NCBI GenBank assembly: GCA_014871385.1
Contig: CM026432.1
Location: forward strand, 5,977,224-6,041,223
DNA from: Ceratodon purpureus
Taxonomy: Eukaryota; Streptophyta; Bryopsida; Pseudoditrichales; Ditrichaceae
Direction: 5' to 3'
DNA length: 64,000 nucleotides
Part shown: positions 17,573 through 64,000 of the stretch, piece after piece
Position numbering within the stretch: the first letter of the stretch is position 1
How the letters are laid out: each line of letters begins with the position of its first letter
Translations under genes and position numbers: made by a program
Notes under the pieces: model-generated
Databases searched by the model: none
The model's input: only the letters and a program-made list of their open reading frames with translations
What the model was told of the DNA's origin: nothing

Positions 17573-17698
17573 AGCGCCATTTCTCTGGTTGATTTTTTTA
17601 CCTTGCAATTCGGTGTGCACACTATGTACATGTCTCCGAGAATGCTCTTGTATCTCGATAAAGGATTGCTTGATGTACACAATAGCAGTCGTGACTCA

Positions 17699-18940: not shown

Positions 18941-18943
18941 TCA

Positions 18944-25195: not shown

Positions 25196-25218
25196 ATGTG
25201 AAAGAAATGTGATAGAAA

Positions 25219-32538: not shown

Positions 32539-33065
32539 AAGCAAACTCATGTTTTATTGTTAAAACTCAAGTGCTCGAGTTGAGCTGTGCGTTTGCTTGT
32601 TCAACTTTGCTACTTGCAACAAACAGGTAGCGCTTTCTTTTTTTTGTTTAAACCCCTTTTGTGGAGTATCGAACTGGTTCCTTCGGATCGAAGATGAGAA
32701 TCTTCTTATGATTTTTATAATGTCAAAGATGACGTTGTAAGGTAGTTGGATTTGAGGTTGTTTGTGTTGGAGGGCCTTTTTGGAGTTCTCATATCTTGAG
32801 TGATTATAAGAGAGTCTTTACCGTTGAGCCTGTACGATCTTTGAATAATCAGCTAAGAGCTTTGCATGTGTTAGAGTATATTTTCTACTGTGTATATGCA
32901 TTTTCAGTTTAAAATTGTTTTTTGTCGAGTCTCCCTTATATTGTTAATGCATGGTTTTTTTTTATTGTACTTCTACTTTTACAAGATAATATGATATGAT
33001 ATAAAGTTATTCTAAGATGATGCTTGACTTGTTTGCATATCATCCGTCATGTTGACATTTTTCAG

Positions 33066-36349: not shown

Positions 36350-38256
36350 CTGTCACAAAATCAAAATAGGTAATCAATAATACTGCCATACAATCAGCAC
36401 TCAAGCACTAGAATTTACGAATTAAAATTAAAACTGACTCAAAGAATTATACCTGCTTATTCAGAGGGGTGTGATAAAAACGAAATTCTGATGCCTAAGT
36501 TATAACACCACTTTCATACCCTGATGCAATCACCAAATAGTATTAAGACGTTCAGATATCTCCGAGGAACAATTGATCTCATCAGGAGCTACTCCCGAAT
36601 TGCTGAGGAACTTCTAGAGCTTCAAGATCATTAAAATAAGCGACATTAAAGAATTAAATCCCTTGCAGATTCTTTCCTCAACAACACCATTTCTAAAGAT
36701 GAAAGCTCAGTGGCATATTACCAGTGTGAAGAGTACCCGTAAGGTCAAGGCTGGTTGTATCACTACTGCAATAAGGTAGAACCATCTATCTCCGACCAGT
36801 TAAGGTTTGAGCATGTGTTTTTGAGGCGACGAATTTGATGAGGATTTTTCCCTTGTGGAGACATAAGCTTATTCTTGAATGCAAATTTTTTTGGAATTTT
36901 ATTCCCAAATTCGAAATAGTTACAGATTTTTAAAGTGAAAAGCACAAAACCACCCATAAGTAATCAGTAGGCCCACCTAAAACCGACCACCATAACACCA
37001 AAACTTGATCACCAGAATATTTCCATATGATTCCCTCTCTACCAATCATGCTAGATACTTTCTTCTAGATCTCTCAAGATTTTAGATCTAACAGAAGGTT
37101 GGAATTGGAGAAGACTACTGATCGGTTATGGGTCCCCGGTTGGAGATGGGTGGTTCTACCTTACCTGGCCTTTTCTCGCGAGGGTCCCGTACAATTCCAT
37201 TCTCCTTCCACTCCGAGTGAAAACGCGCACGCGGGCCACTTCCACTTCCAATTCCAAAATTCATAAATACTAATTCAAGATAGATCTAAACTTTATGACT
37301 GCAATTGATCCAGTCTTACATACATTGCACGTTTACTTAACCCTTAAACGACAATTCATGGCCTAGGCGGGTAGCCCGAAATTGGATCACAACAACTTCT
37401 GTACTTGGGCATCATGAATAGTGCACTTTTTGAACTTGGGCTTCATGGATGAACCAATTAATGATGAGCTTACAACCTCGTACAAGGTTATGTGCAACCC
37501 CAACCTATTTACCACAATCCTTCTAAAGCACAAATCCCTCATACAAATTGTGATTTAAATTATAAAATCACACTTTCTGAATGCATCATAAGAAGGTGAT
37601 TAAAATGATACCAAAAATGATACCAAAAACTATGTGAAAATTTGAGTACAAGGAGAGCTCCAGGGAAGATTCTGGAGAAATCAAGCCCCTCGAGCTTGCT
37701 CTGTCGTGTTAAATTGATTCCCTTGGCCACTCCCCCAATACGAGTCGCAATCTGAATTCGTGATGTTTCCGAGCATCATACTTAACACTGAAAGTTGCCG
37801 GGAAAGTCCTTCTCACATTCTTTACTCCCGAAGTGCTTAGCAAGTAAAGATGAAAGATTGCTCTCGAGACTCTTGAGTAAGTTGATTACCAAGCATACGT
37901 TCAGTAATTTGCGTTGAAAAAATCTCCAAAACATCTCGCCAGGAACTTGCCTTGGTAATTATTGTACCGTATCATTGCATATTTCAAAGAATATTTCAAA
38001 GATATCAGCAACATTGGATATTTCAAAGAATTGTTAAAAATCCTTGAAGGTGATTCCCTCCAGATTGGCCTCCAAGCAACATCACCTCTTATAGAAGCAT
38101 TGTCTTCCGTTCAGTATCCACAGACTGCGGAGGTAAGTGACAAGTACGTGACGCATGCTTTGGGGCGCTCCTCACACGCAGAGCAGCGTTTTTCCGAGCG
38201 ACTAAACTCTTGGATTGCCGATCAGTCAGATTTTGGGATTTGTAGAGCTAGCCGCA
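36350..38256. other. Spacer upstream of the dehydrogenase pair, no gene seen
   Basis: AT-rich to about 37.9 kb, then rising GC up to the first dehydrogenase. The promoter of that gene should be in the last few hundred bases. I see no canonical element I would defend. Confidence 0.4.
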
Positions 38257-39210
38257 ATGACAACGCGCGTCACAACTCCCTTCGACTGTAACTCCACCAC
38301 CGACGACGTGCTTGCAGGGGTCGACCTGACTGGCAAACGCGCCATCGTCACGGGAGCCTCCTCCGGCCTCGGCATTGAGACGGCCCGCGCGCTCGCGTCC
38401 AAAGGAGCCGAGGTAACGCTTGCAGTGAGAGACACCGAAGCGGGCAAACAAGTCGCGGCCGACATCACTGCCAAGACCGGCAACGCGAACGTGCATGTCG
38501 CTCCGCTCGACTTGAACAGTCATGCGTCCATCGCGGCCTTCACCAAAGCATGGACAGGCCCTCTGCACATCCTCATCAACAACGCAGGGATCGCGGGCCT
38601 GCCTGAGCTCACACGAACGCCAGAGGGGTGGGAGCAGCAATTCGCTACCAACCACCTGGGTCATTTCGAGCTCACACTGGGGCTCCACGACGCACTCGCC
38701 TCAGCAGGACATGCGCGAGTAGTGTCCGTGAGCTCTGACCGCCACCACATGTCTCCAGTCGTGTTTGAGGACATCCATTTCGAGCGCCGGAGCTACGACC
38801 CGTATAGTTCATACGCGCAGTCGAAGACGGCGAATGCGTTATTCGCTGTGGAAGCCAACAAGCGGTGGACGAAGGACGGGATCACTGTCAACGCCATCCA
38901 CCCCGGCGTAATTCGCACCAACTTGGCTCGTCATGTGCCGGTTACACCAGAATGGGAGAAGATGAGGAACAGCATTCCCTATAAAAGCCTGGAACAGGGC
39001 GCGGCTACGCAAGTCTTCGTGGCGGCGTCGCCGTTGCTGGAAGGCATCGGCGGGCGGTACTTTGAAGACTGCCACGAACCGGAAGTAAATCCAAACTTCG
39101 AATACCGCGCAGCGAGCAACGGCGTCAACCCTCATGCTGTGGACCCCGACGCTGCTGCAAAATTGTGGGCTATGTCCTTGGAGATGCTGAAGCAGCGCAC
39201 AGCTGCTTGA
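38257..39210 (+). CDS. Short-chain dehydrogenase/reductase, copy 1
   Basis: Intronless, 317 aa, start at ATG (MTTRVTT), which matches the start of copy 2. Classical SDR with NAD(P)-binding TGASSGLG at residues 32-39, NNAG at 108-111, active-site Ser near 159-160 (SVSSDRHH) and YAQSK with Tyr186 and Lys190. The length and the long C-terminal substrate region resemble retinol-dehydrogenase/WWOX-like or protochlorophyllide-reductase-like SDRs that reduce or oxidise carbonyls or alcohols; the substrate cannot be read from sequence. The CDS is strikingly GC-rich with C/G third positions, unlike the AT-rich surroundings, and lacks introns. This suggests acquisition from bacteria or fungi, or a retrocopy. 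A second, near-identical copy lies 1.3 kb downstream. Confidence 0.93.
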   Translation: MTTRVTTPFDCNSTTDDVLAGVDLTGKRAIVTGASSGLGIETARALASKGAEVTLAVRDTEAGKQVAADITAKTGNANVHVAPLDLNSHASIAAFTKAWTGPLHILINNAGIAGLPELTRTPEGWEQQFATNHLGHFELTLGLHDALASAGHARVVSVSSDRHHMSPVVFEDIHFERRSYDPYSSYAQSKTANALFAVEANKRWTKDGITVNAIHPGVIRTNLARHVPVTPEWEKMRNSIPYKSLEQGAATQVFVAASPLLEGIGGRYFEDCHEPEVNPNFEYRAASNGVNPHAVDPDAAAKLWAMSLEMLKQRTAA

Positions 39211-40552
39211 TTACTTGGGGAATGAAGAGCATCGCCCACAGAAGAGCCGCGGGATTCGTCTCGCCGGGCTTGTACCCAAGCCGCTCGTTTCCTTCATATA
39301 TAGCTTGCCCCCGCTACGACACTCGGAGAGTTGGATCCGTACGGACTTCGTGGATTTTGTAATTTAAACAAATATATAGAGGTCGTGATTTAGCAAAGAG
39401 GAGACAATATTGTAATTTTCTTTGTAAATAACTATGCGGATTTTATAGGAAATTCTATGAACTTCGTCCTTCCATTATGGTCAAGTGTGCAGGGAGTTTG
39501 GGTGGTAATTTGGATGGCAAATTATGTGTGAGAAAAGTCGTAAGAGTATCTACATGAGTGACTTGGAAGCCGAGGTTATTTGGTTAACAAGGGATTCACC
39601 GTGGTGCTCCCCAAAGCCGAGTGCCAGTAACCATGGCTTGTAAGAGTTCGACTTCACCTCCATCACCTGCCACACGAGCAAGATTTTTCGTCATGGCGAA
39701 TCTGCTCTTTTGAAAGAAACGTTCCTCACAGAATGTGACACTTCACATACTCACATGTTTTTTTGTGCTCATCCGAAGGAGAAAGAAGAAGGATTCATGA
39801 TATGTGAGAAATTTCACTTAGTTCTTTAAGAAATAGCGTTTGTGAGGAGTCTCTGAGTGGTCATAGTTCCTCTTATTTGCTCGTCATTCGCATGTTAACA
39901 ACACATGGAGGTGTGCTGGAATGGCGTTCCTTCACAAATCCGGCTTAAAAGTGCTCGCAAATCAGTACCAATCCTTTTTGCATCCACCATATTCCGTGAC
40001 AAACATAGAGAAAATTGGACGATATCGCCACATCGGTATCGGGATATCTACCATGCTGATGCGTCAGACATTATTAGTAAACATGACGACAGTGTGTTCG
40101 ACTCCAAATGGAGGACCGTTTTCAATATTTCACAATAGATAACATTTGAAAACGTACAAGCATGGATTGGCAATCAAGCATCCAAGGAACTGCATTCTAC
40201 CTATCTTCTTTTCACATAGAACTCTTGACTTTGACAGAAATTGTACAGAAGCTAGTTCGAAACGTGCGACGACTTTCCTTCGATACATTGTCCGACTGAG
40301 CATGTGTTAATGTAATAGAAGAAAGTGGTTTTAAAAGCAGTTTCGAGATCACATTTAGACATCCAAGTGAGCCTGGAGTATTCCCCGGACTCATGCATAC
40401 TGGAAGGATTGGTGATTTATAAAGCGCCTCTGTCTTTCGCAAGCCACCCAGCTTTGGATTCAGGCACTGAGGCTAGAATGTTTGAGTTTGTCGGAGACGA
40501 GTTGGCTACTGATTAGTGTAAGCGGATTGTGGGGCAGTGTCCGAGGAGCATC
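39211..40552. other. Spacer between the two dehydrogenases
   Basis: AT-rich; apart from the first bases after the stop it does not resemble the sequence after copy 2, so the duplication covers little beyond the coding sequence. No gene seen. Confidence 0.45.
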
Positions 40553-41503
40553 ATGACAACACGCGTCACGACTTCCTTCGATCGTAACTCTACCACCGAC
40601 GACGTGCTTGCAGGGGTCGATCTCACAGGCAAGCGCGCCATCGTCACGGGCGCTTCCTCTGGCCTCGGCATCGAGACTGCCCGCGCGCTCGCGTCCAAAG
40701 GAGCCGACGTAACGCTTGCAGTGAGAGACACGGAAGCGGGCAAACAAGTCGCGGCCGACATCACTGCCAAGACCGGCAACGCGAATGTGCATGTCGCCTC
40801 GCTAGACTTGAACAGCCATGCGTCCATCGCGGCCTTCACCAAAGCATGGACAGGCCCTCTGCACATCCTCATCAACAACGCAGGGGTCGCATTCCTGCCG
40901 CTGACGCGAACGGCGGAGGGGTGGGAGCAGCAGTTCGCTACCAACCACCTGGGTCACTTCGAGCTCACGCTAGGGCTCCACGATGCACTCGCCGCAGCAG
41001 GAAACGCGCGAGTGGTGGTCATGAGCTCTGACCGCCACCACATGTCTCCAGTCGTGTTCGAGGACATCCATTTCGAGCACCGGAGCTACGAGCCACTTGT
41101 GGCATACGCGCAGTCGAAGACGGCGAATGCGTTGTTCGCCGTGGAAGCCAACAAGCGGTGGGCGAAGGACGGTATCACTGTCAACGCTTGCCACCCCGGC
41201 ATAATTCGCACCAACTTGGGTCGTCATGTGCCGCTCACCCCAGAATGGAAGCATATCGAGAGCCGTATTCCGTATAAAGGCCTGGAACAGGGCGCGGCTA
41301 CGCAAGTGTTTGTGGCGGCGTCCCCACTGGTGGAAGGCATCGGCGGGCGGTACTTTGAAGACTGCCACGAACCGGAAGTGAATCCAAACTTCGAATACCG
41401 CGCAACGAGCAACGGCGTCAACGCTCATGCTGTGGACCCCGACGCCGCTGCAAAATTGTGGGCTATGTCCTTGGAGATGCTGAAGCAGCGCACAGCAGCT
41501 TGA
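40553..41503 (+). CDS. Short-chain dehydrogenase/reductase, copy 2
   Basis: Intronless, 316 aa, ATG at MTTRVTTSFD. Nearly identical to copy 1; differences cluster after NNAG (VAFLPLTRTAEG against IAGLPELTRTPEG, one residue shorter) and around the substrate-binding region (HVPLTPEWKHIESRIPYKGL). The TGASSGLG, NNAG and YAQSK motifs are kept, so it should be active. Same GC-rich codon use. The tandem arrangement in the same orientation indicates duplication after arrival in this genome. It may be a paralogue with shifted substrate range. Confidence 0.93.
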   Translation: MTTRVTTSFDRNSTTDDVLAGVDLTGKRAIVTGASSGLGIETARALASKGADVTLAVRDTEAGKQVAADITAKTGNANVHVASLDLNSHASIAAFTKAWTGPLHILINNAGVAFLPLTRTAEGWEQQFATNHLGHFELTLGLHDALAAAGNARVVVMSSDRHHMSPVVFEDIHFEHRSYEPLVAYAQSKTANALFAVEANKRWAKDGITVNACHPGIIRTNLGRHVPLTPEWKHIESRIPYKGLEQGAATQVFVAASPLVEGIGGRYFEDCHEPEVNPNFEYRATSNGVNAHAVDPDAAAKLWAMSLEMLKQRTAA

Positions 41504-48800: not shown

Positions 48801-50853
48801 CCTCTATTTTCAAAAAACAACCGGTTTTTTTAGATTATACCCAGTATATCATGTCTATGAATACTAAATATAATTCTTTTTCAATCAATTGATCCGGTGA
48901 TTTGCTTCTATCCTTGAAAATCTACCAGCTATTTTCAAAATCCATTCGGTAGCCTTGTAACTAACTGCCGGCTCTTCCCGGACAGTGCTCCTTATTCTAT
49001 TGGTTTATGGTATTACTACCTTAGAGACTTTGTTACAGTGTTTTTCAAAGTTCACAACATCCTTCTTGTAACTTGAATTTATTGTCAAACGTAGAAAGCT
49101 CCTACAGTAGTACAGTGTGCAGCAGAACGGACAAACTCCTTTTTATTCCTGCCAGCTTCATATAGAAAGCAACTTTTCAGCTTCATTACATTCTTCAACG
49201 AGGCAGTGGTTCAAGAGTGCACCATTGGGAGTGCGCGTAGGCCTGCGGCGTGCCAGGGTGTCAGGCACGAGCAGTACCTCGTAAGGAGCGCAAACGACAC
49301 ATTCATTGTCCGCTGACGATATCATCCGCATGAAAATACTGTCCAGAATAAATAAAAGGCCAGAAATACAGACCGTATAAGTATACATCGTACGAAACGT
49401 AACACCCCAAATATCATCCAGTATTCATCCGCTTGACATACATACGAATACGAATACGAATACAGTATACATACTGAAAGAGGAGGGAGATGGCGCCGGC
49501 GCCAGGTGGGATGAATCGTCTCACAGGTGTGGCACGATGACAAGCGTTTCTGCCACAGTCCCAAAATATTACCAATAGCAAACCAGAAAAATCATAGACC
49601 TGGGTAGGGTGTGAGACCACAAGTTTGACTGATTGTGAAAACAACAGCAGAGTATTGGTGTTATCAAAATAAAGGGGGGACGGTGTTATCAAACACTTTA
49701 TATTTACAGGATCTTTGCGACAGCGTGTTGTTTCATTGACGCTGGATTAGTCAATATTGATATACTTCCTACGCATCAACTATGTAAAAAACAAAATTAT
49801 CCAAAATCCGTCGCATATAAATAGCCGCAGCAGTTGAATCCAGGAGCACTGAAATACATCCTTTCAACAATTTCAACACAGTGCTTTCTTTTGCTTTCTT
49901 GACAATTGATCATCTTCAACAGAGAACTGAAGACTTCATACTAAGATTCTCCAAGTCAATGACTTCCGAGCGCAACACTGACGAGCCTTGGCTGGGTTAG
50001 CAGAAGCTCAAGAAAAATGGATGCGTTGAAAATGTTATTGGATCATGGCGCCGGCGCCAGGTGGGAAAGTCATAAAACAAACTTTTTCGAAATCAAGAGC
50101 CAAGAGGTCTTCAAGCATTGAGACAGTCACGGTTAAACGGTTATAAACGCCAAACAAATTCATCCAAAAATTGAATTACCATCAAACGGGCTGTTCAGAA
50201 CTAATGTGAACCCAGATCGCAACCTTTAAAATCCAAAAATAACATGCAGAACACCAAGGAAAGACTTGGAAATATCCCGGCTCACTAGAGCATCGACAGT
50301 GGAGAACACAACAGTATTCTCAGAAAAGCTAACTGAGAAATGCGCGCTGTCGATAGATCTATACTGCAGCGTTCCAGCGTAACAGGTCAGATTGCTCAGT
50401 GTTACAAATAACATCGTAATTCGTATCAAACTCAAATAACAATATGTCCGACTGCAGTCACCAGCGACCGCGCCAACGAAAACAAAGATAAACCTTCCTG
50501 AAACTTGGCATACTCGGAGGTGACTTGAAACTGTCGAACTTACAGGCTTGAGGGTGGCGCCAGCGCCATTCGATGGCTCATTGACGTGGCCAGTTTATTA
50601 GACCTCGACAATCTGGAACAAGTGTTTATCCTATAGGCTATGGTGGCATTTTCAGTATAATGTCAAACCCCCAAAAAGAAAGCTTTCGCTACTGTATAAG
50701 ACAGACATGTACAAAAATCAGATTATAATCATTTCGGAGACAAGTTCAAGTGATCAACCAAAGCAATCACACTATATTGAATGGAGTGAACCATTATCAC
50801 AAGCGCAAACGCTGCAAACTCAATGACGAAGAATAACATTGATAAAAGTATGC
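48801..50853. other. Spacer carrying the first GGCGCC palindromes, no gene seen
   Basis: No splice-consistent coding region. Two perfect copies of TGGCGCCGGCGCCA (49491-49504, 50046-50059) and one variant (50555-50568) lie here, in the 3' flank of the small gene at 50854. Confidence 0.45.
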
Positions 50854-51483
50854 CTACAGTTCACAATGCGTGGGCTGAATTTCAACTTCCTCCCACATCT
50901 GACCCTCAGTAACTAAGTAACGAGCAGTACCACGATGAATCCAAGTCCGAGCGCTCTCGTCTAGCTGCCAAAAATGCAAGACTTGCAATATCAGGCGTCC
51001 TGTGATGTGCCTCGTAATCAGTACTTGTCTCGGTTGAAGGCTAGCCACGTCGCGGTTCAGGTACAGAACAGCTCGGTCAGAAATTGGACCAATGCTAGAT
51101 CCCAGAATCAGGATAAAGTGGGGTTTATAAGGAAAAGAGTTGATACTGATCCCGTCTTTGATAGAAGACCATGAAAAGCATTGCTCTGAACAAGGATCCA
51201 AGTGAGGCAGAATCAGCTGTAGCAATCTGAACAGTCGACTCGAAGAGAGAGCTCGAAACCAACCGATTGTCAAGAGTGGTTTTGAAAGTATGGACTCCAC
51301 ATTTGGTTCAAAGTCGGAGTCGCTATTGTCACTACCGTCACAGAGAACTTGTGCAGACCCTCCACAATCATTCCACACCAACGCATTACCCGCAATCATC
51401 GCATTTACTTCCTGGCTCCTTGAAGGAGGGCTGCATCTACTACCCACGGCAATGACCATACGAGGCTGCTTCCTCTTAACCAT
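50854..51483 (-). CDS. Hypothetical protein, 209 aa
   Basis: Single open exon from ATG (MVKRKQPRMVIAV) to TGA. Residues about 45-65 are acidic (DGSDNSDSDFEPNVESILSK). The rest is mixed, with FLLQLILPHLDP-like hydrophobic stretches but no clear membrane helix or known motif. SDSDFEPNVESILSKP faintly resembles the start of the ParB-like exon of the neighbouring gene (GESEPENDDDGRVQTILRKP), and RLFRLLQLILPHLDP resembles its PLRLLIPLCRLKP. It could therefore be a shortened, diverged paralogue of that N-terminal region; this is weak. It lies on the same strand, 1.5 kb beyond that gene's stop. The plus-strand candidate at 51889 is divergent, 405 bp away. Confidence 0.5.
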   Translation of the reverse strand: MVKRKQPRMVIAVGSRCSPPSRSQEVNAMIAGNALVWNDCGGSAQVLCDGSDNSDSDFEPNVESILSKPLLTIGWFRALSSSRLFRLLQLILPHLDPCSEQCFSWSSIKDGISINSFPYKPHFILILGSSIGPISDRAVLYLNRDVASLQPRQVLITRHITGRLILQVLHFWQLDESARTWIHRGTARYLVTEGQMWEEVEIQPTHCEL

Positions 51484-51888
51484 CGCGGTACACAATATCA
51501 AACCGGACGCTTAAAATGATGCAAGCCACGCGCTCACAGAGATTTAAACAGTAGCGCTCTTAGGCGGAACTTACTGATCCACGGATACGGTGGACATGCG
51601 AACGATAATCGCTAAGTCACTCTCTTTTCGTTGGAGAAAAAGGCGGCAGTGGATTCCAGGCTTATTATAATCATTCAAAGCAGTCGCCAACTTAGACGGA
51701 GTAAATCAACAGAGTTGTGACGAAGGGAACTTACGTCAGAACATGATAATCCGTGGCACTATATTTAATTTCGATTTTGATTCCAAGTAGGATTTTGTCG
51801 AACTACTCTGATCACGGAAACTGCCATTACTGAATATCAAAGCAAATCAAAACAGAAAAACATTAACGTCGTATACGGCGCTTCTGCC

Positions 51889-52619
51889 ATGTCCGGCCTC
51901 ACTAACTACAGTAGTCTAGATTCGGCGCTTCTCCCCTCGGTATTTGTACACTGCAATTATGGGTTCACAGCTACCAACACTTCGAGCCATGTCCTATACA
52001 CTGTGTCCATGTACTCGACCTTGAACACTTCTTTGCATTTGCTCAGTCCCCGATTTGCGATGGCGGCCACCCGGCGGAGAGCGAGGAAGGCCACCCGGCG
52101 GAGAGCGAGGAAGGCACCTCAGAAGAGTGCGAGAAGAAAATGGCGTATGGGAGCTGCAGACATCAGATGGACTGAAACTGACGAAGCAATGGGTTGTGCT
52201 GGTACGTGCTTTCGAAAAGGCTGACCTATTTGGATGCTGCTTACATCTATTGAGGCTTAGATTGAATCAAGCCTCCGACGTACAATTTTGTTGCTTGTTG
52301 TGAAGTAGCTATGTAATCAATTAGATTGGTTCAATGTAATCTTCTTTTATCACTGTGCTGCGCAGAATGCGCCTGTCTTTGCCATGGGAAAAGTGGGAAT
52401 CCATTCGACTTTGCCCCTGGGATAATCGGGCTGGAGACCGCCGATGCTATGACATTTCCTTTAGTTCCCATGTTACCTATCTGGGAAGTTCCTGCATTTG
52501 TTGTCTCAGCAGGTGGTCATCAGCGAGAAGACATCGGGTCAGATGGAGTACAGGACGTCTTACAATGTATCCCAAAGTTCTGGGCAGATATTGTGAGCGA
52601 GGACGAAATAGGTGAGTGA
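51889..52619 (+). CDS. Uncertain two-exon gene with Arg-rich repeat
   Basis: Exon 51889-52201 (donor gtacgt) and exon 52366-52619 (acceptor ctgcgcag) join in phase 1 to an open frame of about 188 codons. It holds an Arg/Ala-rich duplicated segment (ATRRRARKATRRRARKAPQK) made by two 24-bp tandem units at about 52063-52110, then CACLCHGKSGNPFDFAPG and PIWEVPAFVVSAGG. A third exon after 52663 would need a 52-bp intron and is doubtful. Another frame of exon 1 (EENGVWELQTSDGLKLTKQW) also looks protein-like and would end 19 codons into exon 2, so the correct frame is unsettled. It is convergent with the methyltransferase gene ending at 52941. No family recognised. Confidence 0.35.
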
Positions 52620-52940: not shown

Positions 52941-55900
52941 CTAAGTCGCAGTGCTTGCAATTCCATAAGAGGTCCCGCTTACGGAGGGTTTAGATTGCGA
53001 GGGTAAACTGCCGACAATGCCAAGGTGCTGTTGAAGACTGAGAAGCTGGTTGTCCTCTTGAGCAATATCTACGTCAGCCTCCACAGAAATTTCTTTCAAG
53101 AAGACATGAAAGGGTGATGCATCCTCCTCCATGGCAAGAATGTGACGTCCACTGAGTTCACAAGCGGACACAGACGAGCCTGCAATCGGACGCAATTGGT
53201 TAGAATTTCACGAACTCCTTTGCAAATTATTTTCAATTCAATGAGATTAGTGAGAACGGTCAGAATAATCATACCTACACCGGCGGTCAAGTCAAGCACC
53301 GCACTCCCCCTCTCGGTGCAAATCTCAATCATTGACTCCATAAACGCAGGCGACTTCTGTTTTGATCCACGAAATGAGTCAACCCCGTCTACTCGCAGAA
53401 GGTTATCGTCGGTCACAACGTTTTGAAGCACATCAGATTGGTCCGGGTTCCAGTCCATGACTTTACTCGCAATTTCGTTGAAATGGAACGCTTCATTTTT
53501 CATGCTCCTTTTCCGTAGAACCTTAGCCTTGAACAGCCGTTTCTGAAAAGCATCAATCCACAGAATCAGTTACGAACATACCTAAATATTCAGGCATATC
53601 CATGTAATAGTCTGTGATGGCGCCGGGGTCACCTCAAATGAGGAAGGGATGAAATTCGACACATAATAAAGATCTGACGCCTTAAACTACCAAAATCTAG
53701 GACCACGACATCGAAGTCGAAGTAACACCCTGGACTCGGGATCAAAATGAACATGGAATAGCGTTCCATGTGCTCAGATTATGAGGGAAAGATTATCAGC
53801 ATGACCATGCATCATCCAGCAGCGCATTCTCCAGTCAAGAGGTATGTACAGGCGAATATCGAAGAGGCTTGGGACTCACCATTCCGGTGCTAATTAGACT
53901 AAAATACAAGCGGCTCATGAGACTCACAGTCCTCACGGCTCAGTAGACTCAAAATCCAGCGACATTGTACAAGGATCTTACCCAGGCTGGATTGAAAGGC
54001 CTGTGATTCACAACATAGAACGTTCGTACACAGTCCCAATCATGAAGCGCATTTAGGTCATCGAGCTCCTCTGCAGGCACAAAGAGGAGAAGGAATCCAG
54101 AGTCTGACAGGACCGCCTCGGCAATGTGAAATATGGCTGCAAAAGTGGACTTCTTCACCATGTTCCACGTTGGAACATTTCCCAATACACCAGGCACCCT
54201 ATTATTATCCGGTGTATCGCAAATAATCAAATCGACGCAGTTGGGGCTAGCTACCCCATCATGCTGCCGAAGCTTGCCACCATTGATCTGTATACACATT
54301 AAGATAAGCCAGAGAGTTGAGCAGTAAGTATCCAGCAATCATGAAAAGCATGGTTCACATTGACCCAGAGATCAAAAAATAAAAGGAAAAAAGAAAAAAG
54401 AAAGTAAAGCATGGTACAAATGGCGCCGGCGCCATGACAATATGATGGACAAGAAATGAATCGATACTTTGCAAATTTGCAACGAAATCGGTGGAAAAAA
54501 GACCGTCCACAATAGAAAGCACCTCGAAAAATAGACCTTGCAAAAATCAAAACTTCAGGCAAGAAAATACTGATTGCGGAATGCGGGATAAAAGAAAGTC
54601 AATTCATTGAATCCGAAATGAATAACACCAAGTTTGAAATACTCTGAAAGCATGTCACCAATAGTGTTATTGCCATTGCCAACATGTAGAGAAACAGTTT
54701 TCGACCACTCGAAATGAAGAATGAAGGACTTGCTGATGGCGCCGGCGCCATCCGGAGAAAAAGCTTAAACTGCAGGACTGCTTTCTAAGCAGAAGGAAAT
54801 GCAATGAGACTGCGAGAAATCGAAAACTGCGAGAGCCTTGGGAAAGCACCTAGTATACCTGATCACAGGTGTCCGCTTTCAGCTTATCCGACACTAAGAA
54901 ATTACAATGTCATGAGGCTCTATATATAGGTAATGATATAGAGAGCGGAGGAGAAATGGCCTATCATGATACTGCATGCGTGGATAACGATGAGAACGGA
55001 ATTTATGAACTGTCAACTAAAATCCTAGTAAATATCTCACGACCTTCGGCTGCAAGACCGAGTTTGGCAAAAATACATGCCTCACGAAAAACAATTGCAC
55101 TGTAATCCGAACGATCGAAAGAGCGACTCTATCTTACACAGGACAAGCCTACTTGGCAGCAAGGAGCTCAATAATGTCTATGCTAAGAAATCCCCTTTTA
55201 CGTTATCCATCTCTAACAAAATTAGCAACAACCATGTCAAATGGAAGTCACGAAGTACAAGACCACAAAGTTTTAAACAGCAACCGCAATCGAAAGCATC
55301 CTAGTAGTGGACAGGCTATCTCCGCAGCAAGGAACTCAAGCAATCACAAGTAGAACTATACACTAACATAAAGGCAACAGAGATAAATAGTAACTCACCC
55401 GCTTTATGCAATTCATAAATGTCTTGAACATGGATCGATCAATTCCCTCGAGGAGGGACTCAAACGCGAGATGTAGGGACAATTTAATCGTCTTTGCCAC
55501 GCCATCTACTGGCAATGCCATATATCTCACAAGCGGTATTGCGTCGTCGCCACCTTTGGGAGTTTTCCTTCCAGACTTCGATGGGTGTCGTTTTGGGGGT
55601 GCCACTTGACTGTTTAAAGCGGCCTCCTCCTCATGTGTGTCCTTGACAATGCGAGGGCGCAATGTCGGTCCTCGACGAACACCGTCTGTTGGCTCACCCT
55701 GAATCTCCTTGTTCCTTGGCTCTCCTTGAGTAGCCCGTAGAAACTCGAGATCATCGTCTTCATCAGAAGTCACCATTTTCGACAAGTCCCCAACAACACC
55801 TCTAATCGCATCTGTCGCGTCATCGTTTTGCGAGATATCTCCGCGTTTTGATGACTCAATTATGTCCTGCAGCTCAGTGAATAGAATGGGGCCATAATCC

Positions 55901-58900
55901 ATCAGCATCCCATTGTTAGTGACCGGTACGTAAACATAACTGACTCTACCCTCAAGCGCACCAAGTAGGTCAGACGATGGGGTGGGAGATACCATTCCAG
56001 GGGCGCCATTCCCATCGCGAAGCGAGCTCTCAACTTGCGACTTGACCATCTGCATCGTTTCAGAGAGCACCGAGGCCTTCTCTGCCAGAGTCGCATCCAT
56101 CGTAGCCTGGATCTGCAGAAGCACTTGATCGCGTAGGTTTTTGTCCCCCTTGTCCATATAGCACTCGGTTACACCTTCAATGTCCTCAATATACCATCCC
56201 AGGCTATTCAAGTGCGGGGGATCGAAGTGATCAACTTGGTACTGGGTGAAGCAACCGTCGGCGGATCGACGTTGCCAATCTTGAAATACAGGGAAGTCCT
56301 TTAAATTCCCGGATTCACCTTTTATCAGTAGTTGCTCACAAAGCCATCGCACGAACCGCATGACACACCTCTTCACGGCCTTCTCTCCCAACTCGTATCT
56401 TGGCTGTTCCTCCCAGGTCTTATGGCGAACTGGTCCTGCCTCTACTGTAAAAATCTCCGGGAAGAATCTATCAAAACCAAAGATCATTACATCCTCAAAG
56501 TAGTCTTCCAGCAGCTTCGTGGTGTCACTCTTTAAACGAAGGAAACCAATTCCTTTCTCCAGCTTGGTTTTTCCGAGAAGTTGCTCGAAGACCTCACCAA
56601 CCCTCTTTTGCAACTGTGACACAAAACGAATACAGCACAGCTCACAGACATTAGGGTCGAGTACCTGCATTGAGCTGACTGCATACATCAATAATATTAC
56701 TATTTAAACATCAAGGACTTGCTGATGGCGCCGGCGCCATCTGGAACAAAAGTATCTACAACGACGACTGTCCTAAGGAGAATCCGAAGCAATGACTCGT
56801 AAACAGTTCGAAAACTACAACAGCCTTGGGAAAGCACCAAGTCTATCAATCACAGAATTAGTTCGAGATTAGACCTTTGATTCGGGAATTGCTCCACTCA
56901 GAATAATAGGGTGAGCATCTGAAGAATAAGACAAAGCTAAGAGAAATCTAGAGCAAGTCACGAAATCCAGACAAATACCGTACGAGCCTCGGCGAAAGAC
57001 AAGTCCACTGAATCAAAGGATCCAAAAGATCAAAACAGAAACTAAATTGGAATGCAACATGTTACAAAACAAGCATACTCGGCAGCAAGGAACTCAAGAA
57101 TTAGTACACAGCACTCCCAACGACACATTCTGCAGCGTGGCTAGTACCAGACTCCCAGCCTCCCAGAGTATAGGAATTCAAAACAATGAGCAAATTAATT
57201 CATTTGTTCAATAGTTTGCAGAATATATTCTCATCAACAGTCCAACAAGCAGCCCTAGTGCTAAGAAGTAAATCCAAACTATAAGGAAATGAAATATCAG
57301 GAGTATGTTAACTTAAACTTCATTAAAAAACAGAGGACAGCAACCCATACATAAAACAAATAACTGGCGAGACAGAAAGAATTTAAATGATACAAGTATC
57401 ACCGCCTAAAGCCCATAGATCATCATAAAAACCTCATCTCAACCTGACCACATTCGAAGACCGCACAGCTCAGGGACACCACGTTCGAAGACATGGGAAG
57501 GGAACCTAATGTCATTAAACTGACTGCATGGCTGCCGGATGAAATGCGAAACAATCCGACCTCTGTTTAAAGGCTAAGATACCAAACCATAAAATTGAGA
57601 AATTGGAAATTGTCCGACTATCTATGCAATGGGAGGTGGAGAAGTCACCTGCTCCCACCAGGCTCTCCGATTGAGCCACTTCTGGAATGCGGCCCTGGTG
57701 AAGTCCTGGTCCGGAAATCTGTACTTCTGCTTCTCATCACTGCTCGAATTCCATAACTCCAATACTCTTTTTATGTCAACACCCTGAGCACCCACCAAGA
57801 TATTGAGGTTGTCGACGGTCATTGCGCCAATCTTCTTGTCACTGGCCATGGCGCGACTGCGACTGTTACGGACCAGCTCTTCGATGAGATGCGGGTGATA
57901 CTTGGGGTTGCATAGTCGAAATATTTTTTTCATATAATCCATTTTTTCCTTCCGTATCCTCTGAGCGCCCATGTGCTTCGCGTCCTCAATGGCCAAAGCA
58001 GTTGGGTTGTTCACTTTGTTCTGCAGCCTCTTCACGGAGTCTCGTTCCGCCATGCTTATTTCACGCTGCATTGAAATAAAACCGCCATTAAAATTAGTTT
58101 CAAGGTAAGTTCGTTAAACATGCCCCTCTCTGCTATCACAAGTTGGCAGCATGCAGCAGGAATTCTGACTTGAAACGCAAAGCTAAGGTTAGTTTAGAAA
58201 GCACCAGCAGTATCAATCATATTAAGTAGGACTTAAATCTACATCGCTAGATCCCTAATTCTCCCTACTACTAATTCCATCAAGAAATAAACAACATCCT
58301 CCTAACTAATCGAAATAGCTGGCCACAGAAGGAAATAAAGCACATGCTGCAGATTCGTCGCACTTATCAGGTATATGAAAGTCATAAATCCGAGGCCTCG
58401 GTGATCCTTAGTCAGATCGAGCAGGAATTTTAAAATCAATAGAGACAATACATCGCTTACCTTGAAGTAAACTTCGCATACAGCATCACACGTCATCCTA
58501 TACCATCGCCCCTTGCAGACATCCTTGATGCGCTCAATCTCACTCTCTGTGAAGTAGACCTTGTACTCAGTGGGTTCACGACTAGCAATTTGCATTACTT
58601 CGAAAATGGTGTGAGCCAACTGTTTCTTCACTGTTGAGTTCACTGTCCCACTGCGTATTCCGAAAACCCAATGTTAAAATAATGCAATGGCCAGTCCTCT
58701 GAAACTTCTCCTTATACTATGTCAGTTTATATTACCTCATGCCGCATGTTTGCTTCCCACAAATAACTCAAAGCAGTTTTGGAACTATCAACTAAAATCA
58801 AAGTTACAGTGACTGAGATAACAATAAATAACCAGGCCGACATCGCCATGCTGATCAGAGAATCGACACAACTGGAACTGCTGTGAAACTGTAGCAATAG

Positions 58901-61900
58901 TACCATCTAGCCTCCTCTGTTCGCAGTATTTGCAGCCTCACGTGTATTCTTATCACGCTGCCAATACACTCCCAAGTGGAGCTAACGAACAGCACCAGTA
59001 CAGAGTACGGAACTCTAAACAATGTGCGTGTCAACTGAAAATCGAGTTCTAAGCAAGCAGTGACCCACTCTGCCCCATCAATCACAACCACTCAGAACCC
59101 ATTCCGAAACCACAAGTCCATTTAAAATCCGCGCAAAAGTGAAGCACGAAGAGGGTGCATAATCCATGAGGGTACACATTCAAGGCTACAGCTGCCATAA
59201 CGCAATCAAATACCTCACGATGAAGAAAAAGGAAGGACAGATAGGATGAAGCGGAACCAATATGGAGTAGCCTAGGGTTAAGGGTCATACTCGTTAATAT
59301 CACGCATGAAGTTCGAGATCCAGCCACGGTCCTCTTCAGAATCGTTAAGAACAAAGCAGTTCACCATAATCGGCTCTCCATTGCACTCTCTGATGTGCCG
59401 CATCCAAGCCAAAGCCCTATGGTTCCCGTCCCATACATTTACATAGTGCCCTATTATTTTCTCAAAAATCGGTCTATTTTCGGGGTCACTCTCGCATCGA
59501 TCTCTGAGGTCCTTGTCGAATTTTGCAGACACAGCTTCCCACCTCTCATTATCCTCAAGCTCCTTTAGAGTGAAGGGACCGGGATTTCCGCAGCTAGTCA
59601 CCCAGAAGTTGGCACCCCAATCCCCGATATGAAAACCTTCATAAACGATTTGCACATCTGCCTCCAGTGCTTGTCGAACCCACGTCGTCGGCTTCAGTCT
59701 GCAAAGAGGAATTAGCAAACGGAGGGGCTTCACCTTTTTTACCGCAAGCCGCTTGTGAATGTTCAGTTGGCTACATAAAGCCTCCTGAAACTGCTCAAAT
59801 GTGGACACGGTGGGCTTCACATCGGGTTTTCTTAAGATGGTCTGGACTCGTCCGTCGTCATCGTTCTCTGGTTCTGATTCCCCATAATCGCTCATGCCAG
59901 TCTCACTCTGCGAAAATGCAAACAAGATGTGAAATGATTAGAAAGCCTGAATTAGAAAGCCCACCAACAACTCGCAACTGAAACACTGCTTGCAAGGCTG
60001 ATGTCGCCAGAAAATCTTGTAAATTACAGTTTAAACAGCAGTACTCTTAACGTTTCAATATTCAAACGACGACTCTTTTTGTTGCAATGGCAGTTCACCA
60101 TTTAATTCAAAAAATAAATAACTCAAACCACGAGAACTCGCATCAGGAGACAGTTATTAATCCGAGAAGCAAGTCAAGAAATATCTAGCGAACAGAGTTA
60201 GAAACACGATCACTGTATTAAGTAGAGAAATTCGAATCGCAAAAACGTCAAAACAAAGGAAATGTTTTACACTTAGACATTGTTAGCAATGCCGATGCCG
60301 TCCAAACCAGACCCATAGAAAATGCAGCCGTAAGCATTACTTTACTCTTGAACAATCACCCAGAGCTATCACTCATGTATCTATACAAATAAGAAGCTCT
60401 TTACTTTACAGCAGTTCTCCCAAATTAGATTACAAAACAACGATGCTGGTGAGTATATGGACATCTAAAAAAGTTTCAGGCTCTGAACCGCACTGATAAG
60501 AAACAAAGGATTAGCTCGCAAGAACTAATAAACTGCTGGCGAGGTAATCGTTGTCAAAATCACAACAAAGAAGCAAATAATATAATGCATGATAGCCGTT
60601 CAAAGCAACCGATCCTGAACATGCCTGCGCCGAAGGCTCAACATTCATGAACTGCAGACACACTATCACTAGTTTCAAACGTCAACTATCTCCTGCGACT
60701 TCTCCAACTATCCACGTCTGGTCATCGAGATAGATCTCTGTAGATTGCAAGTACGAACCCTCAGACAAGAATTGACATCTGCGTCGGACTAAAGGACCGG
60801 GTATAACTACAAGCTTATGTATGCATTCGTAATCAAAAGACTACCTCACGGTTACCTTACCTATAAATTCATCACAACCAAACAACTTGTATGCTCAGCA
60901 TACAAATAATATCTCCAGCATGCATCGAAGCCGAAGTATTATGGTCAAATCACCGCAGCTACTTCATTATTCATAAATAATTAAATAAGATGAAAACAGC
61001 ACCTAAAATGGAAAGCCACCTAGTCCACGACTAGCGGCCATTGCAGCGAAATCGTATTTGCTTAGGCAACACCCAGAGAGTTTGGTAAGGATCGAACTGG
61101 CGCCGGCGCCAGTAGGGAGGCGGTTACGAAGTTAATTCAGAATGTGACTAAAAGGAACGACCATGAAGTTCTGCCTTTCAAATGAGGAAGGAGTACCGGC
61201 GCTATCAATACTTCTAAGCTATCAAAGAAAATACTGTTTAAATAAAATTATGTGAAGAGCAAGTTCAAATACTAATAAACATAAACTCTGTGAGACGTCC
61301 GAGGAAGTCCGACCACACACCTCACAAGTTGGCTCCAAGAATCAGTTAGCACTAGTGAATTTGCGAAATAAAGTCCAGCCAATAACAACTTCCATAAGAT
61401 GAAAATGATAGCAACACTGGGAGACGAGAGTCTAATCTTTAGAAGAGCCAGTAAAGAATAATCGATGCACATACCTCAGGAGTCTCGGTTGCAAGACCCA
61501 CTATGTAGAGGCCATCCTACAATAAACAAGTCAATCGAATAAATGTATTCGAAAGTTCAAGCAGGAACTGAATTGAGAATCAACCAAGCAGAGTACAATC
61601 ATTCTCCGAAGCAATCACAAGCATCCAATCTGGTCCTCGAAATCGATGACTGTAGAATGCAAGTACGAACGCTGAGACAGAAATCGACTTCTGCCTCGGA
61701 CTGAAGGACCGGGCCTGACCACAAACTTATGAAGATCATGGGTCATATATCCCAATTAGCCCCTGCCCCACTTGCGTTATCAAATTTTATATGCAATCGT
61801 TATTAACTGACTACCTTATGGATACCTTACAGCCAAACAATTTGTATGCTCAGGTTCATAATTTCATCGATGCCGAAGTACCATATGGACTCTGAGAAGA

Positions 61901-64000
61901 GTATCACTGATTCCACTCAACTGATCATTCTATGTTATTAATTAATAACTGCTTTTCTAACCATGTGTATAATGGTCAAATTATAAAAAAATAGAATAAG
62001 TTGAAAACTACCTAGTCCAGGACAAGCGTTCTCGGCAGCGAAAACCTCAGGCATTCTTAATGCTGTTTGGTAAGTATCGAACTGGCGCCGGCGCCAGGTG
62101 GGAGGCGGTTCTGAAGTTGACTCAGAATGTAACTAACAGCAACGAGCATAAAGTTGACTAACAACAACAAGCAACAAGCACTTGCTTTCAACGGAGCAAG
62201 TGATGGAGTACCGGCGCTATCAATACTTCCAAGCTAACACAGACGAATGTATACTTATAAAAGACTGTTTAAATAAAATTATGTGAAGAGCAAGTTCAAA
62301 TGCTAATGAAGATAAACTCTGTGAGACGCTCAATTATGTGAAGAGCAACTCGAGAAAGTGCGACCAAACACCTCACAAGTTGGCTCAAAAAAACAGTTAG
62401 CACAAGCGAATTTACGAATAGTTTCCGAAATCCAGCCAATAACGAGAAACGAGAATCTAATCTTTTTGAAGAGCCTCGCTTGCAGGTCCCACTATGCAGA
62501 GGCCATCTCACGATAAACGTATACAATCCAATAATCGTATCAGAAAGTTCAAATCAGGAACTAAAATAAAAATCAATCAAGCAGAGGACTAGCATTCTCC
62601 GAAGCAATCACAAGCATCAAATCTGGTCCTCGAAATCGATCACTGTAGATTGCAAGTACGAACGCTGAGACATAAATTGACTTCTGCCTCGGACTGAAGG
62701 ACCGGGCGTGACTACAAACTTGTAAACATAGAGAAAGGATGGACAAAGGACGGACAAAGGATGGAAATGGCGCCGGCGCCAGTTGGAGGCTAGTATGCAA
62801 AAGTCATAGAACCTAACAAATATAAGCATTTGCGTTCACTGGAGTATAGAAGGGAAGGCCTAGGGCTCTATTAATATATCGGTGCTAATAGTCATGTATC
62901 CAAACACATAAAATTCTATCCAATGCATGCCACACTTGTGGAAAATAATGGAGAATTCAAAACCTGGAATGGGTTTAGTGAAGCACCACTTGTATATGAG
63001 ATTAGAGAATAAGAACGTATGTCCTCCACTTAGATTCCCAAGGTAAGCATGTGAGTATGAGAGCAAAAACTGAAATAGTTGATAGTTAACTCTAAGAAAG
63101 TCTCCATAACCATACAAACGGCGCCGGCGCCAGGTGTGAGGCAAATCTGCAAGGAACCAAAATATCCTACGCAGCCAAGTAGACGCAGTTAACAAAGGTT
63201 TTGAGTCACAAATGATAGCGTCAAAATCTCTCACGGGACACAACGCTGGCTCCAGCTGGGTCTGATAAACGGACTCTAAACCGAGATGAGGGCGTAAATC
63301 TGAGATTCACTGATAATAACTTCTGCGGAGTATCACATCCATACGGGATCCGCAAGAAGAGAAATTAATCAAACACGTGAAAGAGTTAGGGTTGAGAGCG
63401 ATGTGACCAAATTACAGTATGTGATGGCGCCGGCGTCACCTCACATGATGGGGGAATTTATGTTGACATCCAATGAAGATTAGACTATCCACATCAAAGA
63501 CTAAGTGATCCAAATCGTGCTCGCATCGGCATCGGCATGCAAAACTACCATGCATCTACTCAGTGAATCCGGGAATGAGTACTGCGATGAGCAGACTTGA
63601 TCAAGCAGCGTAATTTCTATACAAACCATATAGACCTGCAAGTATCCGAGTGCTTTTACAGTCAACAATGCGATGCTAGTTGGACATATCCTCTAGCGGA
63701 TCAAAAAACTCACAACCCCACGCCTCAAAATCCCCCCAACTCAATACAATGTGAATCTCAAGATACAGTCGACGCATTTTCCGCGGCTCGTGGCGCCGGC
63801 GCCAGTTCTAAAGGGTACCTCACCAATCTGATCGCGAAGAAGAATTCCTAGAGACACAAACATGAAACATAACAATCTGACCTAATTCCGAAAGACCCAA
63901 CAAGCCCATCCACAAAAAACCGACTCTAAGTACCTGGACTTCAGTCTTTCGTTTCTTGCGCCCTCGACCCCCACCATCCTCGTCCTCCCTGGACCTCCTA
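52941..64000 (-). CDS. ParB-like domain fused to a beta-class DNA-methyltransferase-like domain (5' end off the window)
   Basis: Nine minus-strand exons: 64000-63934, 61516-61475, 59907-59291, 58650-58461, 58065-57649, 56664-55399, 54287-53982, 53542-53275 and 53179-52941. All eight introns are GT-AG and in phase (0,0,2,0,0,0,0,1), giving 1136 aa in the window. Order: basic NLS-like GRGRKKRKTE; acidic SESEPENDDD-like stretch; a ParB/sulfiredoxin-like region (PLRLLIPLCRLKPTTW ... HYVNVWDGNHRALAWMRHI), whose GNHR box is the signature; a 550-residue middle region with no recognised fold (WLNRRAWWEQ, VMRFVRWLCEQLLIKG); a basic linker (PPKRHPSKSGRKTPKGG); then a circularly ordered methyltransferase: motif IV-like VDLIICDTPDNN, SFRGSKQKSP (equivalent of HPTQKP) and motif I AVLDLTAGVGGSSVSACELS followed by GRHILAMEED. 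Motif IV is DTPD, not DPPY/NPPY, so catalysis may be altered or lost. ParB-plus-methylase fusions are known from phages and plasmids; here it is an intron-rich nuclear gene. Confidence 0.8.
54723..56850. repeat. Two related ~135-bp intron repeats around GGCGCC palindromes
   Basis: 54723-54860 and 56712-56850 share GGACTTGCTGATGGCGCC at one end and CAGCCTTGGGAAAGCACC-type sequence at the other, with similar spacing. One lies in the intron before exon 54287-53982 and the other in the intron before exon 56664-55399. They look like copies of one small mobile or duplicated unit. Confidence 0.75.
60720..62830. repeat. About 1-kb tandem duplication inside the first introns of the ParB-methyltransferase gene
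   Basis: Blocks at about 61050-61740 recur at about 62040-62725 in the same order: the GGCGCC palindrome, GAGTACCGGCGCTATCAATA, AAATTATGTGAAGAGCAAGT, the micro-exon, and GCCTCGGACTGAAGGACCGG. A third partial copy of the last block is at about 60720-60830. Substitutions throughout show the duplications are not very recent. Confidence 0.85.
61475..61516 (-). other. 42-bp micro-exon of the ParB-methyltransferase gene
   Basis: Acceptor tattgtag, donor GAG|gtatgt, 14 codons DGLYIVGLATETPE, phase 0 on both sides, joining KRKTEVQ to SETGMSDYGE. A decayed duplicate lies at about 62473-62507, where both splice sites are lost. Confidence 0.7.

What the first reader, a model, noticed from the sequence alone, without database searches (positions are those of the whole stretch)
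52941..64000. Nuclear, intron-rich gene fusing a ParB-like domain to a DNA-methyltransferase-like domain
Seen: eight introns with mutually consistent phases join a DGNHR ParB/sulfiredoxin-type box, a long novel middle region and a C-terminal segment with motif IV-like, TQKP-like and motif I-like blocks in beta-class order. Known: ParB-methylase fusions occur in phage and plasmid DNA-modification modules. Inference: an ancient transfer became a eukaryotic gene, perhaps a chromatin or DNA-site-recognition system.
Basis: partly seen in the sequence, partly recalled or inferred. Interest (0 to 1): 0.88.

Follow-up and report, generated by a model that had tools for sequence, protein, structure and literature searches.

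The report
Moss mobile element with ParB-methylase-like gene
The intron-rich gene is real, but it belongs to a large, repeated, apparently mobile element of a moss genome, and a 14-letter mirror-image DNA sequence recurs through these elements, which hints that the element recognises its own DNA.

Summary
The gene is real but is not a single domesticated host gene. On the minus strand 8 exons (7 GT-AG introns; start codon 125 bases beyond the window) encode 1147 aa. Its C-terminus is a beta-order N6/N4 DNA-methyltransferase domain: a phage methylase aligns over 95% of it (E 3e-6), but catalytic motif IV reads D-T-P-D where the phage enzyme has D-L-P-Y. The ParB-like box is present only by eye; no profile or fold confirmed it. 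The gene sits in a large (about 30 kb or more) dispersed element of the moss Ceratodon purpureus: 59 loci hold at least a piece of the gene. The left end is sharp at window 49200, where six copies share the end next to unrelated DNA. A divergent intronless gene has transposase-like (SWIM/DDE) relatives. Intact copies evolve under purifying selection (dN/dS about 0.1). The palindrome TGGCGCCGGCGCCA occurs 793 times genome-wide (reversed control 0) and, in the sites sampled, clusters at these elements. Best explanation: an element-encoded self-recognition factor acting at the palindrome, working like the VANC anti-silencing proteins of Arabidopsis VANDAL elements. Binding, methylation and transposition are untested; the right end and target duplications were not found.

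The parts
63934..64000 (-). part of exon 1 (full exon 64125-63934, ATG at 64125 beyond the window); basic NLS-like stretch RGRKKRK
   Evidence: aligned without gaps in the five other stretches searched
59291..59907 (-). exon 2; ParB-like segment with VWDGNHRALAW box (DGNHR 59430-59416)
   Evidence: ParB fold not confirmed
58461..58650 (-). exon 3
57649..58065 (-). exon 4
55399..56613 (-). exon 5, long middle region without a family match
53982..54287 (-). exon 6, motif IV-like DTPD (54218-54207)
53275..53542 (-). exon 7, QKSP block and motif I-like VLDLTAGV
52941..53179 (-). exon 8 and stop
49200..49470 (.). left terminus of the mobile element (first bases GAGGCAGTGG)
   Evidence: similarity to five other copies begins at 49196-49200 with a query that started at 40001; unrelated flanks at six copies; 23 of 26 genome matches of 49200-49470 keep the first base (that query began at 49200, so it does not itself show where similarity stops)
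49491..49504 (.). palindrome TGGCGCCGGCGCCA
50046..50059 (.). palindrome
54421..54434 (.). palindrome in intron 5
54737..54750 (.). palindrome in intron 5
56726..56739 (.). palindrome in intron 4
61098..61111 (.). palindrome in intron 1
62083..62096 (.). palindrome in intron 1
62768..62781 (.). palindrome in intron 1
63119..63132 (.). palindrome, one outer base changed (12-bp core intact), intron 1
63791..63804 (.). palindrome in intron 1

Best explanation
The finding is one gene of a large, multi-gene DNA element that has moved or been copied around the Ceratodon purpureus genome (shown: dispersed copies that share one sharp end next to unrelated flanks; transposition itself is inferred). Its neighbour, whose start codon lies 488 bp away in the opposite direction, looks like a Mutator/IS256-type transposase (inferred). 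The protein joins a ParB-like N-terminus (inferred) to an N6/N4-methyltransferase domain (shown by sequence) whose motif IV lacks the usual aromatic residue. I propose that it is a self-recognition factor: the ParB-like part and/or the methyltransferase-derived part recognises the palindrome TGGCGCCGGCGCCA, which is dense in the element and absent from the 49 kb beside it (shown), and marks or shields the element's chromatin from the host's silencing. That is the role VANC proteins have on Arabidopsis VANDAL elements. Binding to the palindrome and anti-silencing are inferred. The altered motif IV suggests a reader or clamp rather than a normal methylating enzyme (inferred).
For: Dispersed copies: 69 DNA matches and 80 protein matches merge into 59 loci with at least a piece of the gene, on 12 contigs. 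Homology of copy C8 with the window's surroundings runs from 49198 to 78572 with gaps, with short matches to about 79.9 kb. Sharp left end. Purifying selection across the whole protein, dN/dS 0.12, 0.11 and 0.08 for the three pairs among C12, C8 and C5. Palindrome: 793 sites against 0 for the reversed control; 14 exact and 9 one-mismatch sites in 49200-80100 against none with up to 2 mismatches in 1-49199; 0 expected in shuffles; 16 of 16 core sites of the window's copy outside the frames counted as coding, which make up 38%. Clustering: of the first 50 sites listed, all on contig C1, 38 lie within 50 kb of a gene locus; the four loci cut out for the bare palindrome (two places, five sites) hold element genes at 34-78% aa identity. 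An 18-bp version: 32 of 37 within 25 kb of a gene locus, 0.8% expected. Sites persist: 11 of 19 identical in four diverged copies against 12-15% of other non-coding 12-mers. VANC precedent: short motif, dense, in introns and intergenic parts, spread by tandem repeats (PMC5735166, passages); copy C8 has a tandem array of about 1.08-kb units with seven sites, one per unit.
Against: Nothing links this protein to the palindrome beyond co-occurrence; another element protein or a host factor could bind it. In the C1:689k place and in copies C8, C5 and C6_78 some sites lie inside gene B's coding part, so they are not always non-coding. Of the 37 18-bp sites 5 are far from every gene locus found; one of these (C8:17950020) is about 300 bp from an element end, four stay unexplained. 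Many 18-bp sites are copies of one ancestral site, so they are not independent, and only 15 of 37 lie outside stretches I had already fetched (10 of these 15 near a gene). On C1, 2 single sites and 5 of the 9 sites of the 689-718k cluster were not read. In copy C5 only 1 of 4 covered sites is identical. Gene B and some neighbouring frames in C8 and C5 have length differences that are not multiples of three, so those copies may not be fully functional elements. The ParB fold is unconfirmed. Right terminus, inverted repeats and target duplication were not found.
Confidence: 0.45

Rival explanations
1. The palindrome is an internal or accessory binding site of the element's transposase (gene B), and the ParB-methyltransferase-like protein does something else, such as target choice, replication help or a chromatin role.
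For: At C1:689-692k the palindrome sits in and beside gene B (76-78% aa in its best part), and no ParB-methyltransferase match at that place was among the scored hits. Transposases of this kind commonly bind their own DNA (established knowledge).
Against: Sites are spread over 30 kb rather than concentrated at the known end. The rest of the C1:689-718k cluster was not read, and the match list is a lower bound.
Confidence: 0.2
2. The methyltransferase is catalytically active with an unusual motif IV and deposits 4mC or 6mA at or near the palindromes as a self-mark.
For: Domain conserved under strong purifying selection, dN/dS 0.09; motif I and a QKxP-like block kept; eukaryotic 4mC precedent in bdelloid rotifers (PMC8885841, abstract start in the listing) and DNMTs inside retrotransposons (PMC5890265, abstract).
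Against: Motif IV is D-T-P-D in the window, C8, C5 and P0001, where the phage enzyme has D-L-P-Y; the aromatic residue is a near-universal catalytic feature of this class (recalled). In the palindrome the only adenine of each strand is the outermost base.
Confidence: 0.15
3. The element is a decayed or integrated large DNA virus, or a virus-like element, rather than a transposon.
For: Large, multi-gene, with accessory genes (weak RING matches, S1-like) and a methyltransferase related to phage enzymes.
Against: No capsid, polymerase or packaging family among the element frames scanned against Pfam (not every frame of the element was scanned); intron-rich gene; one end shared by many loci; SWIM and weak IS256 signals in relatives of gene B.
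Confidence: 0.1
4. One reading: an ancient transfer became a single host chromatin or DNA-recognition gene.
For: Nuclear, intron-bearing, under purifying selection.
Against: 59 loci with at least a piece of the gene, equal or nearly equal match scores on different chromosomes, broken copies on C6, linkage to a transposase-like gene and a shared end.
Confidence: 0.05

Closest known systems
VANDAL21/Hi and VANC anti-silencing proteins (Arabidopsis, Mutator-like)
   Same: Multi-gene plant DNA element; extra gene beside the transposase; short motif at high density in introns and intergenic parts; motif spread by tandem repeats (PMC5735166, passages read).
   Different: Here a 14-bp palindrome rather than a 9-base motif arrayed in one orientation; the extra protein is ParB-like plus methyltransferase-derived, with which VANC has no similarity that I know of (recalled, not tested); element of about 30 kb or more; no binding or demethylation data.
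Phage and prophage ParB-CTPase / N6_N4 methyltransferase fusions
   Same: The same pairing of domains is reported as frequent in phages (PMC12704722, passages read); the methyltransferase domain aligns with phage methylases. The phage enzyme I aligned (280 aa) matched PF01555 only, so it is not itself such a fusion.
   Different: 1147 aa in 8 exons with a long middle region; motif IV DTPD; eukaryotic element. In eukaryotes that survey names sulfiredoxin as the most common form of the fold; the passages I saw name no eukaryotic ParB-methyltransferase fusion.
DNMT-carrying retrotransposons of dinoflagellates and charophytes
   Same: Mobile element that carries a DNA methyltransferase (PMC5890265, abstract and outline).
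   Different: Those are C5 enzymes of host origin in retrotransposons, shown to methylate CGs; here an N6/N4-type domain with altered motif IV in an apparent DNA element.
Mutator/IS256-type (MULE) transposases
   Same: Gene B relatives P0002 and P0003 (33% and 32% aa): SWIM finger above the Pfam cut-off in P0002 (E 6.8e-5), weak in P0003 (E 2.5); IS256 at E 0.003 in P0002, far below the NCBIfam cut-off.
   Different: Gene B itself has no Pfam match; inverted repeats and target duplication not found.

Membership tests
N6/N4 DNA methyltransferase, beta order (PF01555) | sequence similarity over the domain with order motif IV - QKxP - motif I | tested here: met
   Phage enzyme aligns over 95% of the 219-aa query, E 3e-6 tblastn, 25% identity, co-linear. 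Pfam E 4.7e-5 but 23.9 bits against a cut-off of 26.7.
N6/N4 DNA methyltransferase, beta order (PF01555) | catalytic motif IV (D/N/S)-x-P-(Y/F/W) (recalled) | tested here: not met
   DTPD in the window, C8, C5 and P0001 opposite DLPY. So: methyltransferase-derived; not filed as an active enzyme.
ParB/sulfiredoxin fold | profile or fold match to ParBc | tested here: inconclusive
   No match in Pfam, NCBIfam, PDB profile (100) or phages; model mean pLDDT 41.7, unusable (105). DGNHR box present by eye and conserved in all 4 proteins aligned (40).
Mutator-like transposon | DDE transposase with SWIM finger | tested here: inconclusive
   SWIM and weak IS256 signal in relatives of gene B, none in gene B itself; candidate D, D and E positions invariant in the 3-sequence alignment, picked by eye.
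Mutator-like transposon | defined ends, terminal inverted repeats, 8-10 bp target duplication | tested here: inconclusive
   Left end sharp; right end, inverted repeat and duplication not found in the sequence held.
VANDAL/VANC-like anti-silencing system (works like) | short motif dense in the element, rare elsewhere, expanding by tandem repeats | tested here: met
   some sites are in coding DNA of gene B and four 18-bp sites are far from any locus or end found
VANDAL/VANC-like anti-silencing system (works like) | encoded protein binds the motif and causes hypomethylation | not testable with these tools
   needs DNA-binding assay, ChIP and methylation data
VANDAL/VANC-like anti-silencing system (member of) | homology to VANC proteins | not tested
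   No VANC sequence was compared; I do not claim membership.

The most novel reading that the evidence does not exclude
A eukaryotic giant transposon runs a parS-like system: an element-encoded ParB-type clamp fused to a retired DNA methyltransferase loads at a 14-bp palindrome repeated through the element and spreads over it, making the element's DNA visible as self and keeping it out of host silencing.
Probability: 0.2. Interest if true: 0.93.

Novelty: new variant of a known kind. Interest (0 to 1): 0.78.

Why it matters
How transposons tell their own DNA from the host's and escape silencing is known in detail for few systems. This would be an independent solution in a moss, built from prokaryote-type DNA-handling domains, with a candidate target so specific that it can be tested directly: 793 sites, a reversed control of zero, and intact gene copies. 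It would also show a methyltransferase fold recruited as a sequence reader.

Tried and rejected
Nine-exon model: replaced by 8 exons; an extra exon between 59907 and 63934 is not needed for an open, in-phase frame. Whole-protein AlphaFold job on P0001 plus window exons: mean pLDDT 41.7, not used for any fold search. A second job on exon 2 was never accepted because the queue was full. Phage ParB-methylase fusions for a profile comparison: two stretches of Wolbachia phage WO fetched, four proteins annotated as hypothetical scanned, none ParB or methylase at E 0.01. Protein database searches: only P0001 for this gene, only P0002 and P0003 for gene B. Terminal inverted repeat and target duplication scans: nothing convincing. 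Copy C6_92 aligns only from 49420; its left end is probably the 96% match at C6:92331702, about 183 kb away. The random expectation printed is too high because positions were redrawn per gene; one search uses exact coverage.

Literature: searches listed no title or abstract start on this element, and 133 found 0 papers with the palindrome letters; the library holds open-licence papers only, so absence there is weak.
Full report
WHERE IT IS. The window is G000:C12:5977224-6041223 of a 362-Mb genome with a 110.5-Mb contig C6. The only protein relative found is 'hypothetical protein M758_11G066700 [Ceratodon purpureus]', P0001, 55% identical over 94%. I take the organism to be the moss Ceratodon purpureus and C6 to be its sex chromosome; the latter rests on recalled assembly sizes.

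THE GENE. On the minus strand, exons 64125-63934, 59907-59291, 58650-58461, 58065-57649, 56613-55399, 54287-53982, 53542-53275 and 53179-52941 give one open frame of 1147 aa with GT-AG introns (the end of exon 1 was corrected between 25 and 32). The start codon lies 125 bases beyond the window. Matches of P0001 in the genome split at about residues 210, 275, 409, 808, 915 and 1006, about the places expected from this exon structure. Read with the window's exon limits, copies on C8 and C5 give 1146 aa without internal stop; their exon 2 has its acceptor AG 9 nt further upstream, in frame. The three copies read on C6 have frame-changing length differences. Between C12 and C8 differences by codon position are 60/54/245, dN/dS 0.12; by part 0.12, 0.14 and 0.09. 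The protein is therefore kept as one unit.

THE METHYLTRANSFERASE PART. Pfam N6_N4_Mtase E 4.7e-5, 23.9 bits, under the 26.7 cut-off. With P0001, PHROG methyltransferases match at best E 6e-6 and a PADLOC type II methylase at E 1.4e-6. A 219-aa piece of P0001 finds phage methylases, best E 3e-6 over 95% of the query; at the lax limit of E 10, 314 records match and 36 cover at least 80%. The alignment with the best one is co-linear: DLILCDTPDNS against DMILCDLPYNT, QKSP against QKPI, VLDLTGGIGSS against VLDNCMGSGTT. The aromatic residue of motif IV is aspartate in all four moss proteins aligned.

THE PARB-LIKE PART. The run 'IPLCRLKP...VYEGFHIGDWG...YVNVWDGNHRALAWM...EPIMVNCFVL' resembles ParB box order by eye (recalled pattern) and is strongly conserved. 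No tool confirmed it. The structure model was too poor to use. I leave it as plausible.

THE ELEMENT. DNA of the gene's 3' part (1347 bases) has 69 matches in the genome. Five stretches of 30-40 kb holding six further copies were read. With a query that began at 40001, similarity of five of these copies starts at 49196-49200; the sixth (C6_92) starts at 49420. To the right, similarity reaches 78572 in C8, 76660 in C6_92 and 74181 in C5 (the last two at or near the edge of what was fetched), 71288 in C6_78 and 65696 in C6_75; short C8 matches reach about 79.9 kb. At the left edge six copies, the window's included, share 'GAGGCAGTGG...' (one reads GAGGCAATGG) next to unrelated DNA. Of 26 genome matches of 49200-49470, 23 keep the first base and one the second; since that query starts at the edge, this shows how widely the end is kept, not where similarity stops. 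together give 59 loci with at least a piece of the gene, 27 of them on C6 (positions copied by hand, merged within 8 kb, a lower bound). Equal or nearly equal scores on different chromosomes (C4/C8, C2/C7) suggest recent movement (inference).

THE OTHER GENES. Divergent to the gene, from 64614 to 68954 on the plus strand, outside the window, gene B is a 1447-aa intronless frame. Its relatives P0002 and P0003 (33% and 32%) carry a SWIM finger (P0002 E 6.8e-5, above cut-off; P0003 E 2.5) and P0002 a weak IS256 match; gene B itself has no Pfam match. Further right are two frames with weak RING matches, all under cut-off, a frame with an S1 self-incompatibility domain (E 1.7e-5, above cut-off) and two more, one F-box-like by eye only. 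Six of the eight frames examined beside the main gene show third-position excess against C8; ORF 50854-51510 and ORF 51781-52224 do not and are probably not genes. Gene B, and some of the smaller frames, have length differences in C8 and C5 that are not multiples of three, so those copies may not be wholly intact as elements.

THE PALINDROME. TGGCGCCGGCGCCA occurs 793 times in the genome; read backwards, 0. In the window it occurs 9 times exactly and 12 times with at most one mismatch, all between 49491 and 63804; shuffles give 0. In 49200-80100 there are 14 exact and 9 one-mismatch sites; in 1-49199 none with up to 2 mismatches; in 80101-93777 one exact. It supplies the top words of the element. 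Its neighbouring bases differ from site to site, so it is not one hitch-hiking repeat, though some sites are copies of each other. In the window's copy 16 of 16 core sites are outside the frames counted as coding, which make up 38%. In other copies some sites fall into gene B's coding part. Over the four diverged copies 11 of 19 covered sites are unchanged, against 12-15% of other non-coding 12-mers and 16-25% of CpG-rich ones; by copy 3 of 5 (C6_75), 4 of 5 (C8), 1 of 4 (C5) and 3 of 5 (C6_78), and 12 of 14 against 55% in the closest copy. Copies are related, so these are not independent.

DOES IT FOLLOW THE ELEMENT? The 50 sites listed first, all on C1, fall into four clusters (9, 17, 11 and 10 sites) and three single sites; 38 lie within 50 kb of a gene locus. 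Of the other 12, five were read: four loci at two places (C1:130k and C1:689-692k) hold element genes at 34-78% aa identity. Five more belong to the same 689-718k cluster but were not read, and two single sites were not examined. An 18-bp version gives 37 sites, all listed; 32 are within 25 kb of a gene locus, expected 0.8%; leaving out stretches I had already fetched, 10 of 15. One of the five distant ones lies about 300 bp from an element end at C8:17949713.

HOW IT MAY WORK. Shown: a conserved, element-borne protein with a methyltransferase-derived domain; a site that recurs through the element and its diverged relatives and outlasts its surroundings. Inferred: that this protein reads the site. 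The closest working model is VANC: Arabidopsis VANDAL elements encode a protein that binds a short motif dense in their introns and intergenic parts, lowers DNA methylation there, and the motif spreads by tandem repeats (PMC5735166, passages). The parallel includes a tandem array in copy C8 with seven sites spaced 1076-1093 bp. ParB-methyltransferase fusions are reported as frequent in phages (PMC12704722, passages). I put 0.45 on the self-recognition explanation, and 0.95 on the narrower statement that the gene belongs to a mobile element.

LIMITS. No transcript data. The right end, inverted repeats and target duplications are missing. The genome tool was mostly unavailable, so gene B copies were not counted. 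The fold question for the N-terminus stays open.

Noticed in passing
window 24186-27461: Large AT-rich array of about 60-bp units (39 copies of an 87-nt reference).
   Followed up: no
window 30947-32539: Near-perfect inverted repeat, arms 271 nt, 99% complementary, with further repeats nested inside; may be a non-autonomous element.
   Followed up: no
window 16832-19843: Several inverted repeat pairs (203-317 nt, 87-93%), a nested palindromic structure.
   Followed up: no
window 38206-41500: Two tandem short-chain dehydrogenase frames (adh_short E 2e-32 and 5e-31), 89-93% alike in DNA: an ordinary gene duplication.
   Followed up: partly
window 4739-5398: Three direct repeats spaced 197 nt, 96-98% identical.
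   Followed up: no
window 8989-10728 and 12828-15296, minus strand: Long open frames (580 and 823 aa) without Pfam match at E 0.001.
   Followed up: partly
C12 71151-72131 in window numbering (L009): Element gene with N-terminal hydrophobic leader and plant self-incompatibility S1 domain (E 1.7e-5); a relative at 34% sits at the single palindrome C1:130006.
   Followed up: partly
C8:7689250-7697200: Tandem array of about 1.08-kb units at the right side of copy C8, seven palindromes, one per unit.
   Followed up: partly
C2:22267708, C3:5737389, C4:4986863: Only the first 65-79 bases of the element's left end match at these places (87-91%): other element kinds or short relics sharing the end.
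   Followed up: no
C6 copies at 75.76, 78.61 and 92.14 Mb: All three copies read on the putative sex chromosome have frame-changing lengths, whereas the frames of the C8 and C5 copies are open.
   Followed up: partly
window 60717-62721: Intron 1 holds three copies of a 100-nt repeat about 1 kb apart (81-85%), with palindromes nearby.
   Followed up: no
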